Of a stretch of 47,616 bases of DNA, positions 33,523 through 40,373 are shown piece by piece. The position numbers were made by a program, and so were the translations under genes. Where the stretch lies: assembly GCA_021731295.1 (NCBI GenBank), contig JAKFXQ010000022.1, positions 1 to 47,616 on the forward strand. Reading direction: 5' to 3'. The notes below the pieces were generated by a model. It was given only the letters and a program-made list of their open reading frames with translations, did no database searches and was not told where the DNA came from. Origin of the DNA: Patescibacteria group bacterium. Its GTDB lineage: Bacteria > Patescibacteriota > Minisyncoccia > Phycocordibacterales > UBA2100. Within the stretch, counting starts at the first letter, position 1; every line of letters begins with the position of its first letter.

Positions 33523-34266
33523 TTAGTCACGCCCGCGGTCTTCGTCCTCCTCATCTTCGTCTCCGTCTTCCCCATCTTCGGTCTCTTCGGGGACTTCCTC
33601 CGGCTCTTCGCTCGCCGCTTCGTCCTTCGAGTCGCGCATGAACATCAGTGAATGCATTTTCCGCGCTGAAAAATCCTTGAGCTCGTCCGAAGCAATCTGG
33701 ACAGCGGCGTAGTCCAACAACGCTGCATCCGTCTCGCCGACTTTTTCCTTCAGCATCGCTCGGATAAGGAGAAGGTCGGTTGAGTTTGCAAAGCGTTCTT
33801 CTTGGAGCATTTCATCCACGAGGAGTATCCCCGCCTTTGGTACTCCGCGCTGTGCGTACGCGAGCGCCAGAAAGCACAGGCCCTGCGAGTCAGTACGATT
33901 GATAGTGCAATACGTCATGAGCGATCGCGTGGCGGCTTCCCCGTCGTGCAAGTTGAGTTCGGCAATCCCGCGCAATTTCCACGCCGGGTACATGGTAGGC
34001 AATGATTCGGTGACCGGCCGCGCATAAAACAGTACCTCCAGATGGTCGTTGCGTGTCTGTGCCAGTTCCGCCAGGTAGATGCGCACAACATTGTTCTCGG
34101 GGTCCGTTTCCAAATGGGCGACGCAGGCAAGGCGACATGCCTCTGCGTCGTCATTTCTATTCGCAAATAATTTGAGGATATGTGGTGGTGGAGCACCCAG
34201 CTTCTTAAGATCCGCCTCAATCATCTCGCGGGTGAAGGTCGGCAACTTCCATTTCGCCTTTGCCAT
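33523..34266 (-). CDS. TPR-like helical protein with acidic tail
   Basis: 247 aa. Repeated helical pairs (ACRLACVAHLETDPENNVVR, RIYLAELAQTR..., GLCFLALAYAQRG) look like TPR/Sel1-type repeats over about 40-200. The last about 35 residues are nearly pure Glu/Asp (EEPEEVPEETEDGEDGD). No signal peptide, so a cytoplasmic scaffold is likely. The acidic tail may bind basic partners such as the Lys-rich 94-aa protein next door (speculative). TATACT ends 6 nt before ATG. Confidence 0.75.
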   Translation of the reverse strand: MAKAKWKLPTFTREMIEADLKKLGAPPPHILKLFANRNDDAEACRLACVAHLETDPENNVVRIYLAELAQTRNDHLEVLFYARPVTESLPTMYPAWKLRGIAELNLHDGEAATRSLMTYCTINRTDSQGLCFLALAYAQRGVPKAGILLVDEMLQEERFANSTDLLLIRAMLKEKVGETDAALLDYAAVQIASDELKDFSARKMHSLMFMRDSKDEAASEEPEEVPEETEDGEDGDEDEEDEDRGRD

Positions 34267-35508: not shown

Positions 35509-36279
35509 CTATTTCGCCGTCCTCAACCAAGGAAATGCTAGTGACGTGGCCTTGTTGGAAATAGGAGCCACCCCTTTCGTTCTTGCAAATGCATAGCAAA
35601 AATACGCCAAGGGCATTCGGCCAATCAGAACCGCAATAAGGTACGTGTACGTCAGTAAATTGCTCACTCTACCGGTCCGCTCCTTTTCAATATCGAATCC
35701 GAGCGCGCTATATTTCACGTCCTCATTCCATGCAATGAGTTGTAAATACTTGAGGTACACAACCGCTGGGATGCCGCCGTTCACCGTTTCCAGTACCGCA
35801 AGCTTGGTTAGCGCGCGGTCCGGAATCTTGTATTCAGGCATAGCCCCAACAGGTTCAGGAAATGAATAGTCAAGGAGGAAGGCGCTCCGATAAAGAACGC
35901 CCGCAAGTATTTCCATTGCGCTCTCTTGATTCTTCTTTAACAGGAGTTCGAACACATGGAAAATTTCCTCAAAAGTCGCTGGCGCCGTGACTCGCGCACC
36001 AGCTTTCCAGATAGTCGGGGCCATGTCGTCAGGATTCGGGCCTGTCGTACCGTTTTTGTGACGCGCCTGAAAATCCGGAGCAGATTCTTTGCCTGGTTTT
36101 AGGAAGCCGATTTCGAAATCGCCCTCTCGCCATACAATATATTTGCGCGGTGCCGGTAGGGTCCCGCCCCGAAACCCTCTAGCGAGTTCTACGAGTTTGC
36201 GGCGAACCGGACCGATGTACTTAGGTTGAAGTAGTTTGGTATTACTTATATTTAGCTCTGTCTGAATGTGTGGGTCCAT
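35509..36279 (-). CDS. Unrecognised protein divergent from the C5 methyltransferase (candidate restriction or defence partner)
   Basis: 256 aa. No motif that I can assign. N-terminal half is polar (RKYIVWREGDFEIGFLKPGK, PDFQARHKNG, PDDMAPTIWKAG); the C-terminal half is helical and hydrophobic (LLTYTYLIAVLIGRMPLAYF). EIGFLK and PDF do not make a clear PD-(D/E)XK set. Position, head-to-head with the methyltransferase at 52 bp, is typical of a restriction enzyme gene. Base use here is more A/T-rich than in neighbours, which suggests transfer. Guilt by association only. Confidence 0.72.
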   Translation of the reverse strand: MDPHIQTELNISNTKLLQPKYIGPVRRKLVELARGFRGGTLPAPRKYIVWREGDFEIGFLKPGKESAPDFQARHKNGTTGPNPDDMAPTIWKAGARVTAPATFEEIFHVFELLLKKNQESAMEILAGVLYRSAFLLDYSFPEPVGAMPEYKIPDRALTKLAVLETVNGGIPAVVYLKYLQLIAWNEDVKYSALGFDIEKERTGRVSNLLTYTYLIAVLIGRMPLAYFCYAFARTKGVAPISNKATSLAFPWLRTAK

Positions 36280-36331
36280 ATGGGGATAAGTCGATCTTGA
36301 TCGAATAAGCCTTGCTTGTTATGATCGAGCT
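36280..36331. other. 52-bp divergent intergenic of the methyltransferase locus
   Basis: Holds the promoter of the methyltransferase (36297-36325). For the opposite gene I see no clear box; TTATCC lies only 4 nt before ATG 36279. Space is too short for two independent promoters, so their expression may be linked. Confidence 0.4.
36297..36325 (+). promoter_or_regulatory. Promoter TTGATC-17-TATGAT, leaderless
   Basis: -35 at 36297-36302, -10 at 36320-36325, and ATG 36332 6 nt after the box. Confidence 0.6.
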
Positions 36332-37741
36332 ATGGGTAAGACGCACCATACCAATCAGACTCAGGCATCGCAACCGCTCCGTGTCGTCGAACTTTTTGCT
36401 GGTGTCGGCGGTTTTCGATTGGGCCTGTCTGGAAAAAACGACGACTCGAGAGATTTCCGGACCGTGTGGTTCAACCAGTGGGAGCCGGGCACAAAGAAAC
36501 AGCACGCTCACGACGTGTACACATCGCGGTTCCCTGCTCTTCCCGATGAGGAACGACGGCTTACTAATCGTGATATCGCCGAAGTCATGAAGGCCGCTCT
36601 CCGAGGCGAGTTTAAAATACCTGACCATGACGTGCTCGTTGGCGGATTTCCTTGCCAGGACTATTCTGTCGCTCGCACTCTCAGCCAAGCGGCCGGCATT
36701 ATCGGAAAAAAAGGCGTTCTGTGGTGGGAAATTCGGAACATCCTCGAACACAAGCGAGATCAGCGCAAGCCCGTCAAGTACATTTTCCTCGAGAATGTGG
36801 ATCGCCTTCTAAAATCTCCAACTTCTCGACGAGGACGTGATTTTGCCATCATGCTGGCCACCCTTGCAGACCTTGGATACGCCATTGAGTGGCGCGTCGT
36901 AAATGCAGCGGACTACGGTATGCCCCAACGCCGCCGCCGCATATTTATAGTCGGCTATCATGAATCCACTGCGCTCTATCGCAGCTTGTCTCTTGAGAAG
37001 CCATTGGATTGGATGCTGCGTAAAGGTGTCATTGCGTCTGCACTGCCCGCTGTTTCTGCTGAGCTATTGCCACTATCGGGCACGATTGAAGGGACACTTG
37101 CTGACATCACAGAAAATTTCGCGAGCAATATGAAAGGAAGTCCATTTAGTAGTGCGGGAATAATGAAGGGGCGCACTTACCATTCGATAAAAGTGTCTGC
37201 TCAGCACGACGGCCCACAAACTACCCTCGGCGATGTTCTTATTGATGAACAGAACGTCCCGCGAGAATACTACGTGGCCGGCGATTTGAAGCGCTGGAAG
37301 TATCTAAAGGGAGCGAAGAACGAGCCGAGAAAAAGTGCCAGCGGTTACGAGTTCACCTACACGGAGGGGCCGATGGCTTTCCCAGACGCGTTGGATAAAC
37401 CGTCGCGCACCATCATCACCGGCGAAGGCGGTCCCACACCATCCCGCTTTAAGCACGTCATTCGATCTGCCTCAGGAAAGTACCGCCGATTAACCCCGCT
37501 CGAACTTGAGAGATTGTGCATGTTCCCGGATCACCACACCGCGCTTGAGGGGGTTTCCGACGTGAGGCGTGCCTTTTTCATGGGCAACGCACTTGTAGTG
37601 GGAGTAATAGAGCGTATTGGTGCTGCCCTCAGCAAAGCACACAGAAAATCTCTGAAGGGTGTTACGTCGGAGAACATGGTGCTGTCTCCTTTAAGCCCGG
37701 ATCTCGCTCGCTCTCACCGAAACCGACCGCCTCATGGGTGA
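36332..37741 (+). CDS. DNA (cytosine-5) methyltransferase
   Basis: 469 aa with all main C5-MTase motifs in order: I FAGVGGFRLG (22-31), IV GGFPCQDYSV with catalytic Cys108, VI ENVDRLL (about 152), VIII QRRRRIFIVGY, a target-recognition region of about 200 residues, and X GNALVVGVIERIG. Methylates cytosine in a specific DNA site; the specificity cannot be read. Likely the modification half of a restriction-modification system with the divergent 256-aa protein. Confidence 0.96.
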   Translation: MGKTHHTNQTQASQPLRVVELFAGVGGFRLGLSGKNDDSRDFRTVWFNQWEPGTKKQHAHDVYTSRFPALPDEERRLTNRDIAEVMKAALRGEFKIPDHDVLVGGFPCQDYSVARTLSQAAGIIGKKGVLWWEIRNILEHKRDQRKPVKYIFLENVDRLLKSPTSRRGRDFAIMLATLADLGYAIEWRVVNAADYGMPQRRRRIFIVGYHESTALYRSLSLEKPLDWMLRKGVIASALPAVSAELLPLSGTIEGTLADITENFASNMKGSPFSSAGIMKGRTYHSIKVSAQHDGPQTTLGDVLIDEQNVPREYYVAGDLKRWKYLKGAKNEPRKSASGYEFTYTEGPMAFPDALDKPSRTIITGEGGPTPSRFKHVIRSASGKYRRLTPLELERLCMFPDHHTALEGVSDVRRAFFMGNALVVGVIERIGAALSKAHRKSLKGVTSENMVLSPLSPDLARSHRNRPPHG

Positions 37742-37754
37742 GATTGATCAACGC

Positions 37755-39695
37755 TTATAGGTTATTCCAACGCCGTGCAATGTAGTCGGTGCCTTCCTCT
37801 GAATGCACCGGTCCTCCATCAAAAAAACGAGACGGGTGGCGGATTGGTTGAGCTGCGTTCCCGCGACCAGAGTGAGCGGTTGGACCGCGCCTGCGTCGCG
37901 CCCACGTCGCAAACACATACTTCTTAGCACGAGTCATAGCTACATATAACAATCGGCAGGCTTCGTTTTGCGTGTCGTGTCCCATGACGATATCGTCATC
38001 GACCCCCACAATTACGCATGCTTCTGCGGTCAGTCCCTTTGAACTGACCATACTCATAAGCCGCACACCTTCACTACGACTTTTCTGCAAATCTTCTCCT
38101 ACCGGCTCAAGCTGCCCGAGGAATCGTCCGAGGTCACTTGGCTCTACGTTCTTCTCAGAAAAATGTGTGTCGAGATTGCGCAATATTTCTTTGAACTCTT
38201 CCGTTATAGAAAAAAATCCGCCACTCGTGCCTGTCGTTGCAATCAGCCAGTTGCCCCATCCATCCTCAGGCGTTTCCTCCGGTAATGGGGTACGTCCAAG
38301 CCATTCCTGCACATTGTCTATAAGTTCGGACGCTGCCCGTCGACTCGGCGCAGGGAGCGCAGGGAAACCTTCCGCGTACAGAGTACGCATCGCATCCGTA
38401 AATGAAGTGCCATCTTCTCGGGCGCGCGCATATACAGCATCAAGTGTGCTATCGGTATTGATGCCCACCTGCAATGACAAGAGCGTTGCCCACGCCAGAT
38501 GGTCGGTCGGATTGGAGAGAAGATGGGCAAGAGCAATCGCTTTGCGATTTGAAGATTCGCCCAACACTCTCTCAACATGGTTGGGATCTGCGTAAGCTAT
38601 CCCTTCTCTCTCCAATGCTTCTTTGATGGGAGTACTGAACATGCCGTTGTGGTCGCCGCGAAAGAGGATGAGTATGTCTGGCGGCTGAATCTTCTCCACT
38701 TCGATAAGCTTCTTCACTATTTGAGCTACCCCATTTGCTTCCGCTGTATGAACGCGAAATGCCAGTAGTGCAGCCTCTCCTTGTGGCGCAGATTCTCCGG
38801 GCAAGATAGTCGGTCTAGCAGCAGAGCGCGAAGTATCTTGCCGTATTACATGGTTCGCCCATTCGATAATACGCGTTCCACAACGTCTCGTGTTGGTCAG
38901 ATTGAAAACCGGAGCCCCTGCGTAGTCGTTCGCGAAACGTCGGATACCGACGGGGTGCGCCTTCCTAAACCCATAGATTGATTGGTCGTCATCACCACAT
39001 GCAAGAATAGTGCACCCCCGCTGGCTTATTCTCTTTATCACTTCGAGGTCACATGCGTTTAGGTCTTGATATTCGTCCACAATCAAAAGTTCGTAGTCCA
39101 GCCCTGCGAGTTCTGGATGGTGTTCAAGCGCGTTGCGCAAACCAAATGGCAACTCCGACACGTGTGTGTAGCCATATATCTCGCGGTGCTCTCCCCATAC
39201 CCCTTGAAAGCGCCTGCGCACATTGGGGTCTATCTCTTTATCCTCATCAGGCGCAAGCGATTCCCAGTTCGCAGCCATCTCCTTAAAAAGTTTTTTCACT
39301 TCTGGCTCCGAGATACTAAGTTGCCGCCGCAAGGTCTTGTGCACGATGTACTTTTTCTCCCAATCATCCGCGATGCGAATGGGGTACACTAACCCACCAC
39401 TACCAGGATTTTGCATAAGCACCGATATTGCAAAAGAATGGATCGTGCTTAGTGGGGGGACCGCTACCTTGGTGTCTGTCTGGTCGGACACCTTGCCAAT
39501 CAGTTCGTTTGTGGCTGCCCGTGTGAAGGTGAGCAATCGCACCCGCGACTTATTCTCGGTGCCCAATAGCCGCAGAAGATACTCGACAACGGTCGAGCTT
39601 TTGCCCGCGCCGGGACCCGCCAAAATACAGCCGTGCGCATTCGCGGGATGGCGCAGTATCTGTTCCTGTTCCTGTGTGGGTATAAAAGCACTCAC
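37755..39695 (-). CDS. UvrD/Rep-like superfamily 1 helicase
   Basis: 646 aa starting at GTG 39695. Walker A GPGAGKS (27-33), TFTRAATNELIGK (Ia), DEYQDLNACD (II), GDDDQSIYGFRKA (III), NTRRC (IV) and VAMTRAKK (VI). About 70-100 residues shorter than UvrD/PcrA, with diverged 2B region, so it is not the housekeeping enzyme but an accessory helicase as found in defence loci. TATAAT ends 7 nt before the GTG. Convergent with the methyltransferase and followed upstream by a nuclease-like gene. Confidence 0.95.
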   Translation of the reverse strand: MSAFIPTQEQEQILRHPANAHGCILAGPGAGKSSTVVEYLLRLLGTENKSRVRLLTFTRAATNELIGKVSDQTDTKVAVPPLSTIHSFAISVLMQNPGSGGLVYPIRIADDWEKKYIVHKTLRRQLSISEPEVKKLFKEMAANWESLAPDEDKEIDPNVRRRFQGVWGEHREIYGYTHVSELPFGLRNALEHHPELAGLDYELLIVDEYQDLNACDLEVIKRISQRGCTILACGDDDQSIYGFRKAHPVGIRRFANDYAGAPVFNLTNTRRCGTRIIEWANHVIRQDTSRSAARPTILPGESAPQGEAALLAFRVHTAEANGVAQIVKKLIEVEKIQPPDILILFRGDHNGMFSTPIKEALEREGIAYADPNHVERVLGESSNRKAIALAHLLSNPTDHLAWATLLSLQVGINTDSTLDAVYARAREDGTSFTDAMRTLYAEGFPALPAPSRRAASELIDNVQEWLGRTPLPEETPEDGWGNWLIATTGTSGGFFSITEEFKEILRNLDTHFSEKNVEPSDLGRFLGQLEPVGEDLQKSRSEGVRLMSMVSSKGLTAEACVIVGVDDDIVMGHDTQNEACRLLYVAMTRAKKYVFATWARRRRGPTAHSGRGNAAQPIRHPSRFFDGGPVHSEEGTDYIARRWNNL

Positions 39696-39702
39696 AGGCA
39701 GG

Positions 39703-39708
39703 ATTATA
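39703..39708 (-). promoter_or_regulatory. Leaderless -10 box TATAAT
   Basis: Consensus box 7 nt before GTG 39695; TTGTTT about 18 nt further upstream may be the -35. Confidence 0.55.
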
Positions 39709-39756
39709 GGCTTTTTTGTTTAGGAAAAACAACTGAATGCCTACCGACACCATAGA

Positions 39757-40323
39757 TCAACTGGATGGTGGGGCAAGTCGGTCCTTTACCTTCCGCGCAA
39801 GTTCGTCTCTGTCAAATCTGCCTGTATTTTCGAGCCGCAGCAGCGGCACACCTGCATCGCTCAAAATTCGCTCCACCTCCCCGTCCCGTTCCTTTCTATC
39901 CTCGCGCTCGTGCGACCGGTCATCAAGCTCAATAGCGAGCCTCGGGGATAGGTCTCTTTTATCGCAGAGGAGGAAGTCAACAGACTTCTGACTGATGTGC
40001 GCACGCGCCGCTCGCCAGTTCTGACCTTTTACTTTCTCGTCTAGAAATGCGTCCAGATGCACCTGGGCAAAAATGCAGAAGTCATGTCCAACGGCTGCGA
40101 CAAGCGTGTGGAAAAAGTCCTGCTCGGCACGCGTCATGATAGAAGACCTCGACGTGTACTCATACAACGGCTTGACCGTCTCCTTCGTGGCCGACGCACT
40201 ATCTCGCTTGCCAAAGAGAATGCGTGCGGCGAGAACGAACGCTGCGAACACGGCTAGTGCTCCGAAGATGTATATAACTGGACCGAAGGCGTTCCAGAGA
40301 ATGGCGATAGGATTGATATCCAT
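39757..40323 (-). CDS. Membrane-anchored DUF2726 (PD-(D/E)XK-like) protein
   Basis: 188 aa from ATG 40323. N-terminal helix (about 8-32) anchors it, then a DUF2726 domain: LTRAEQDFFHTLVAAV-like opening, VDFLLCDK, IELDDRSHEREDRKERD and GVPLLRL. The Asp...Glu-Leu-Asp arrangement matches the PD-(D/E)XK nuclease-like family with the Lys moved. Encoded directly upstream of the helicase in the same direction; helicase plus nuclease-like pairs are common in anti-phage loci (inference). Confidence 0.88.
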   Translation of the reverse strand: MDINPIAILWNAFGPVIYIFGALAVFAAFVLAARILFGKRDSASATKETVKPLYEYTSRSSIMTRAEQDFFHTLVAAVGHDFCIFAQVHLDAFLDEKVKGQNWRAARAHISQKSVDFLLCDKRDLSPRLAIELDDRSHEREDRKERDGEVERILSDAGVPLLRLENTGRFDRDELARKVKDRLAPPSS

Positions 40324-40329
40324 GGGAGA

Positions 40330-40335
40330 ATCGTA
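40330..40335 (-). promoter_or_regulatory. Leaderless -10 box TACGAT
   Basis: 6 nt before ATG 40323. Confidence 0.45.
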
Positions 40336-40373
40336 CCGTTCCAAACCAAAAACACCACCTCACCTCTCCGCCG

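What the first reader, a model, noticed from the sequence alone, without database searches (positions are those of the whole stretch)
35509..40323. Candidate defence island with an unrecognised 256-aa partner
A C5 methyltransferase divergent from an unassigned protein, convergent with an accessory UvrD-like helicase and a nuclease-like gene. The DNA appears more A/T-rich than the flanks. The unknown protein has no classical nuclease motif and a hydrophobic C-terminal half, so it may be a new restriction enzyme type or an abortive effector.
Basis: inference. Interest (0 to 1): 0.62.

Follow-up and report, generated by a model that had tools for sequence, protein, structure and literature searches.

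The report
GATC restriction pair, unrecognised nuclease
The unknown 256-residue protein is very probably the DNA-attacking half of a bacterial immune pair that recognises GATC; it resembles no restriction enzyme family we could find, and its partner's on-switch contains the pair's own target site.

Summary
The four genes exist as described, but only two form a system.

The 256-aa gene (35509-36279, -) and the C5 methyltransferase (36332-37741, +) look like a type II restriction-modification pair. All 16 distinct homologues found lie beside a DNA methyltransferase gene: 10 beside the same m5C family, 6 beside an unrelated N6/N4-type enzyme; no third gene is shared. Relatives of the methyltransferase elsewhere sit beside Sau3AI- and BglII/BstYI-family enzymes (GATC-centred sites).

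Site GATC (inferred): GATC in the host genome is 0.31 of expectation, lowest of 256 tetramers. It is among the lowest three in 13 of 15 carriers against 10 of 50 non-carriers. Five divergent R-M intergenic regions hold 12 GATCs where 1 is expected. In 8 of 18 methyltransferase loci a GATC forms the -35 hexamer (TTGATC), exactly 17 bp from a -10 box: probable methylation-controlled expression.

The 256-aa family matches no Pfam, NCBIfam or PDB sequence; two confident AlphaFold models (pLDDT 86-87) have no convincing PDB match. Its catalytic mechanism is unknown.

Helicase and DUF2726 genes are not linked to the pair elsewhere. An abortive membrane effector has no support. DNA cleavage itself is untested.

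The parts
35509..36279 (-). Candidate GATC restriction enzyme (R), 256 aa; invariant G63 E65 D85 P88 F103 R131 D137 Y150 A183 N185 E186 D187 K189 Y190 G203
   Evidence: 16 homologues, all beside a DNA methyltransferase gene; AlphaFold pLDDT 86.0
36280..36331 (.). 52-bp divergent R-M control region with three GATC sites (36293, 36299, 36323)
   Evidence: 3 GATC where 0.064 expected; element GATCAAGATCGANTTATC shared with L003 and L004
36297..36325 (+). M promoter: -35 TTGATC (36297-36302), 17-bp spacer, -10 TATGAT (36320-36325); both boxes overlap a GATC; 6 nt before the M start codon
36332..37741 (+). C5-cytosine DNA methyltransferase (M), 469 aa, GATC predicted
   Evidence: PF00145 E 1.4e-56; 41% identical to the M. 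hyorhinis enzyme beside a Sau3AI-family gene; only PF00145 match in the genome

Best explanation
35509-37741 is a two-gene type II restriction-modification system for GATC. Inferred: the methyltransferase marks GATC in the host genome, as m5C if it acts like its relatives; the 256-aa protein attacks DNA that carries unmodified GATC, probably by cutting it, with an active site somewhere among the invariant residues (E65, D85, E186, D187, K189 are the candidates). Expression is probably set by the pair's own target site: the M promoter uses a GATC as its -35 box, so on entry M is made first; as M methylates that box (one m5C would lie opposite the G of TTG), M falls to a maintenance level and R can rise. 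Shown: the gene pairing, GATC avoidance in hosts, and the enrichment and exact placement of GATC in the control region. Not shown: DNA cleavage, the methylated base, the regulation.
For: Linkage to a methyltransferase in 16 of 16 loci, with two unrelated methyltransferase families (10 m5C, 6 N6/N4-type) and no third shared gene. Vsr gene beside M in L003 and L004. Methyltransferase relatives beside Sau3AI/MutH-family genes in three fetched plasmid-collection records and a BglII/BstYI-family gene in one, of eight. GATC O/E 0.31, rank 1 of 256; 0.22-0.43 in all 21 stretches; 13 of 15 carriers against 10 of 50 non-carriers with GATC among the three lowest. No DpnII, MutH, D12 or PF01555 gene in the host. 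12 GATCs against 0.99 expected in five divergent control regions. TTGATC-N17-TAnnnT in 8 of 18 M upstream regions, shuffles mean 0.017.
Against: No nuclease motif or fold is recognised. Two carriers are outside the lowest three in the single-stretch test (G476 rank 5, G467 rank 6). Three non-carriers of the same genus (G001, G003, G018) avoid GATC just as strongly, with no DpnII or MutH gene. Carriers and controls are not matched by taxon. G475 also has a DpnII gene. The promoter pattern is absent in 4 of 10 m5C-linked loci and 6 of 8 plasmid-collection records, and none of six PF01555-linked loci has a GATC in the 150 bp upstream of R.
Confidence: 0.8

Rival explanations
1. The 256-aa protein is an obligate helper of the methyltransferase (regulator, inhibitor or specificity partner), and the enzyme that attacks DNA lies elsewhere or is lost.
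For: No nuclease signature. L008 and L016 carry a further ORF next to R with an acidic pattern (GSDIIISIP...VDEKA).
Against: It is shared by loci with two unrelated methyltransferase families, which a methyltransferase-specific helper would hardly be. The extra ORF is in 2 of 16 loci only; no other gene is shared by more than 3 loci. GATC avoidance in hosts implies an attacking enzyme.
Confidence: 0.12
2. The pair is a real R-M system but its site is longer than GATC (for example BglII/BstYI-like, with GATC as core), and the GATC deficit has other causes.
For: One methyltransferase relative sits beside a BglII/BstYI-family enzyme. GATC deficit also occurs without the pair. TGATCA, AGATCT and GGATCC are each low in the host, 0.64-0.72.
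Against: All GATC contexts are low once the core is taken out of the expectation (the four hexamers give 0.64-0.92), whereas the core itself is at 0.31. The shared control elements are flanked by different bases.
Confidence: 0.12
3. The four genes act as one defence island: methyltransferase as self-mark, helicase and DUF2726 nuclease as effector (Gabija- or DISARM-like), the 256-aa protein as accessory.
For: Adjacency; helicase scores best against GajB models in PADLOC (E 3.8e-43); DUF2726 is nuclease-like.
Against: Neither has a match in the 12 homologous loci. No GajA match among the four proteins. R and M pair without them across several phyla.
Confidence: 0.03
4. The 256-aa protein is a membrane-acting abortive effector.
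Against: The modelled C-terminal half is a set of short helices that carries the most conserved polar stretch; the GATC evidence points to DNA as target.
Confidence: 0.02

Closest known systems
Sau3AI-type GATC m5C restriction-modification systems
   Same: Same methyltransferase family (40-41% identity to relatives beside Sau3AI-family genes); predicted site GATC; divergent R and M in several; TTGATC-17-TATAAT before M in L029 too.
   Different: The 256-aa protein has no MutH/Sau3AI (PF02976) match and half the length of the ~480-aa Sau3AI-family gene in L029.
DpnII/MboI-type GATC systems
   Same: Predicted site; six homologues pair with an N6/N4-type methyltransferase.
   Different: No PF04556 match. 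The methyltransferase partner is PF01555, not the D12 type that lies beside the DpnII gene in G475.
CfrBI and LlaDII: expression set by methylation of the cognate site in the M promoter (cited in PMC3874152, passages; original papers not seen)
   Same: Cognate sites inside the M promoter of a type II pair.
   Different: Here the site is the -35 hexamer itself at a fixed 17-bp spacing, shared by loci with different restriction enzymes; regulation is inferred only.
PADLOC candidate PDC-M01B
   Same: One of 13 members matches weakly (L014, E 0.0012, residues 147-245).
   Different: The window protein does not match. PDC-M01 overlaps Septu calls in one survey (PMC11811056, passages); no such gene set was seen here.

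Membership tests
Type II restriction-modification system | DNA methyltransferase gene next to a separate restriction gene | tested here: met
   16 of 16 loci
Type II restriction-modification system | Both enzymes recognise the same short site | tested here: inconclusive
   GATC avoidance, control-region sites and methyltransferase relatives agree but are indirect
Type II restriction-modification system | Restriction protein cleaves unmodified DNA | not testable with these tools
   needs a bench assay
C5-cytosine DNA methyltransferase (PF00145) | Profile match over the whole domain | tested here: met
   E 1.4e-56, positions 2-323 of 324
Sau3AI/MutH endonucleases (PF02976) | Sequence profile match of the 256-aa family | tested here: not met
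   no match at E<=1 in any of 13 members
DpnII endonucleases (PF04556) | Sequence profile match of the 256-aa family | tested here: not met
   no match at E<=1 in any of 13 members
PD-(D/E)XK nuclease superfamily | Core fold with acidic pair and (D/E)xK on adjacent strands | tested here: inconclusive
   The only invariant D-x-K (D187-V-K189) lies in a helix of the model; no fold match, which excludes nothing
HNH, GIY-YIG, PLD and PabI-type restriction enzymes | Signature motifs or profile match | tested here: inconclusive
   no Pfam match in 13 members; folds not compared one by one
Gabija | GajA nuclease beside the GajB helicase | tested here: not met
   no GajA model matched the four proteins
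Abortive membrane effector | Transmembrane segments | not tested
   no predictor at hand; only the model's secondary structure was seen

The most novel reading that the evidence does not exclude
A restriction enzyme family for GATC whose catalytic fold is not among those known for restriction enzymes: a small, mostly helical protein with a helix-borne N-E-D-x-K-Y active site, exchanged between m5C- and N6/N4-type methyltransferases, in a system whose methyltransferase promoter is built on the pair's own target site, so that methylation itself times the switch from protection to attack.
Probability: 0.3. Interest if true: 0.8.

Novelty: new variant of a known kind. Interest (0 to 1): 0.58.

Why it matters
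If right, a further group of GATC restriction enzymes exists with no detected sequence or fold relationship to Sau3AI or DpnII, and catalogues that rely on existing models (Pfam, NCBIfam and PADLOC had none that fits) would count these loci as orphan methyltransferases. The small enzyme, its strict conservation and a predicted site make its mechanism directly testable. The TTGATC-17-TAnnnT rule would predict both site and regulation of other GATC m5C systems from sequence alone.

Tried and rejected
Pfam, NCBIfam, PADLOC and PDB sequence searches of the 256-aa protein gave nothing usable; the one PDB row (a pentatricopeptide protein, no stretch passing on its own) vanished with the profile. Foldseek gave no row at E<=0.001 for the window model on PDB or viral models, nor for L011 on PDB. 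VIA-align best Z 4.9 (95 residues, 3.4 A, gRAMP/Craspase) and 4.2 (115 residues, 5.9 A) are in the range of common arrangements and were not used. A plasmid search with the window protein (E limit 10) gave only chance rows; plasmids with L011 and phages with L005 gave none. Viral contigs gave one locus, found twice (L016, L021), and none for the PF01555-linked subgroup.

An empty-site comparison failed: the left flanking gene (33523-34266) is found in no other of 60 genomes. PDC-M01B was followed into PMC11811056 (passages) and dropped as too weak. Literature searches showed no listing that describes this family or a TTGATC methyltransferase promoter (0 papers), but most rows were seen as listings only; REBASE and most subscription papers could not be searched, so prior listing as a putative enzyme cannot be excluded.

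Dropped rows: 6 of 56 control stretches under 6,000 bases were left out, and L016 (viral) was left out of the carriers there (it gave O/E 0.25, rank 1). In some searches the L003 methyltransferase start was moved to residue 10, to match the MGK start of the window's; in the pooled GATC count it was not moved.

Full report
What is there. The window is contig C5 of a 998-kb, 50-contig genome; the closest named hits are Parcubacteria and Kaiserbacteria assemblies. The stretch is mildly AT-rich: GC 0.524; 1.4% of 706 windows of equal length are as low.

The 256-aa family. A genome-collection scan gave 12 loci (L003 is also G007). A viral-contig scan added L016 and a phylum search added L018 and L019. 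With the window this makes 16 distinct loci, from Patescibacteria, Bacteroidota, Firmicutes bins, a Spirochaetales bin, a Deferribacterales assembly and a viral contig (record titles). The family is rare: 2 of 98 relatives, 3 of 379 genomes of the phylum, 1 of 395 genomes of the phylum of G475, a Prevotellaceae bin; each count includes the query's or centre's own genome. Invariant in all 16: G63, E65, D85, P88, F103, R131, D137, Y150, A183, N185, E186, D187, K189, Y190, G203.

Linkage. All-against-all comparison of neighbouring ORFs gave one family in 16 of 16 loci (this one), the m5C methyltransferase in 10, an N6/N4-type methyltransferase in 6, and no other family in more than 3. PF01555 was confirmed by Pfam in the 5 of those 6 that were scanned; in L012 the gene runs off the end of the locus. 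Order is divergent (window, L003, L004, L018, L019), convergent (L005, L008, L016) or tandem (L006, L007, L009-L014). L003 and L004 carry a Vsr gene beside M, as m5C systems often do (recalled). One family paired with two unrelated protective enzymes is what one expects of a restriction enzyme rather than of a methyltransferase helper (inference). Helicase and DUF2726 have no match in the 12 loci (tblastn).

Which site: relatives of M. The window methyltransferase is 41% identical to the M. hyorhinis enzyme beside Sau3AI-family genes and 40% identical to one beside a Sau3AI-family gene in Lactiplantibacillus argentoratensis. M. hyorhinis has a cloned 5mC enzyme for GATC, Mhy3 (PMC4636357, abstract and passages); that L028 holds Mhy3 is my inference. 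Of 8 annotated records fetched, three have a Sau3AI/MutH-family gene beside M, one a BglII/BstYI-family gene, one an unspecified restriction endonuclease; the other three have no gene named as a cognate enzyme (L024 has an HNH gene two genes away).

Which site: avoidance. In 447.6 kb of the host genome GATC occurs 553 times against 1,803 expected from trinucleotides (O/E 0.31), the lowest of 256 tetramers; next is CTAG at 0.64. All 21 stretches give 0.22-0.43. With one stretch per genome, GATC is among the three lowest tetramers in 13 of 15 carriers and 10 of 50 non-carriers (Fisher P 4.9e-6; Mann-Whitney P 1.4e-6, the next palindrome reaching 1.2e-3). m5C-linked and PF01555-linked carriers both show it. 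The host has no DpnII, MutH/Sau3AI, D12 or PF01555 match, and of 11 carrier genomes searched only G475 has a DpnII gene and none a MutH match. Against: G001, G003 and G018 of the same genus avoid GATC without the pair and without DpnII or MutH; PMC4687349 reports that avoidance can be a trace of lost systems (abstract and passages). Carriers and controls are not matched by taxon, and avoidance is common for GATC in general.

Control region. The 52 bp between R and M hold three GATCs where 0.064 are expected. The five divergent loci hold 12, with 0.99 expected (P 7.6e-10, Poisson on each genome's own density; for L004 the density came from its own 12.7-kb locus). Window, L003 and L004 share the element GATCAAGATCGANTTATC just upstream of R, although R of L004 is only 33-34% identical to R of the window. 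The scan tool finds one promoter, TTGATC-17-TATGAT (mean 0.5 in its shuffles). TTGATC-N17-TAnnnT stands upstream of M in 8 of 18 loci examined (window, L003, L004, L018, L019, L007, L025, L029). Spacers of 10 to 25 other than 17 give 2 loci at 12, 1 at 22 and none otherwise; shuffled sequences give 0.017 loci on average, at most 1 (60 shuffles). In the 447.6 kb of host DNA, both strands, the pattern occurs once, here. It is missing in L005, L006 and L008 (Bacteroidota, whose promoter consensus differs, recalled), in L016, and in six of the eight plasmid-collection records. Since a methylated cytosine would face the G of TTG, autoregulation by methylation is the natural reading; the principle is known for other systems (PMC3874152, passages). 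With 6 nt between the -10 box and the start codon, M of the window would be read from a leaderless transcript (inference).

Structure. AlphaFold2 gave confident models of similar make-up for the window protein (pLDDT 86.0, pTM 0.86) and for L011 (86.7, 0.89): N-terminal helix, a hairpin ending at K-x-G-K-E, a strand after D85-M86-x-P88, then helices, with N-E-D-x-K-Y inside helix 172-192. No PDB or viral match reached E 0.001 and VIA-align Z stayed below 5. This does not prove a new fold.

Verdict. Ordinary in kind (a type II pair), unusual in its restriction gene and in a promoter built on the cognate site.

Noticed in passing
window 37755-40344: A UvrD/PcrA-like helicase with GajB-like scores beside a DUF2726 nuclease-like gene on the same strand; in 60 relatives a close helicase homologue occurs only in the window's own genome. 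Perhaps a separate accessory unit.
   Followed up: partly
L008:6703-7335 and L016:5624-6256: A 211-aa ORF directly after R, with a GSDIIISIP...VDEKA stretch that resembles a nuclease acidic pattern, in 2 of 16 loci; no Pfam (L008) or NCBIfam match.
   Followed up: partly
L016 (IMGVR_UViG_3300026522_001174): The pair lies on a contig classed as viral; whether the contig is a phage was not tested. GATC O/E 0.25 there.
   Followed up: no
G001, G003, G018 (same genus as the window): Strong GATC avoidance (0.18-0.37) without this pair and without DpnII or MutH matches: a lost system, or further unrecognised GATC enzymes. G014 and G017 also avoid TCGA (0.34-0.35).
   Followed up: partly
L025 and L029 upstream of M: TTGATC-17-TAAAAT and TTGATC-17-TATAAT before M genes that sit with BglII/BstYI- and Sau3AI-family enzymes: the promoter rule may hold across GATC m5C systems.
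   Followed up: partly
L003:2345-4156: A GmrSD-type modification-dependent restriction gene (PF03235, PF07510) beside the Vsr gene of that locus.
   Followed up: no
L007:2516-4264: An ATPase resembling the retron Eco8 effector (well below the curated cut-off) just downstream of the pair.
   Followed up: no
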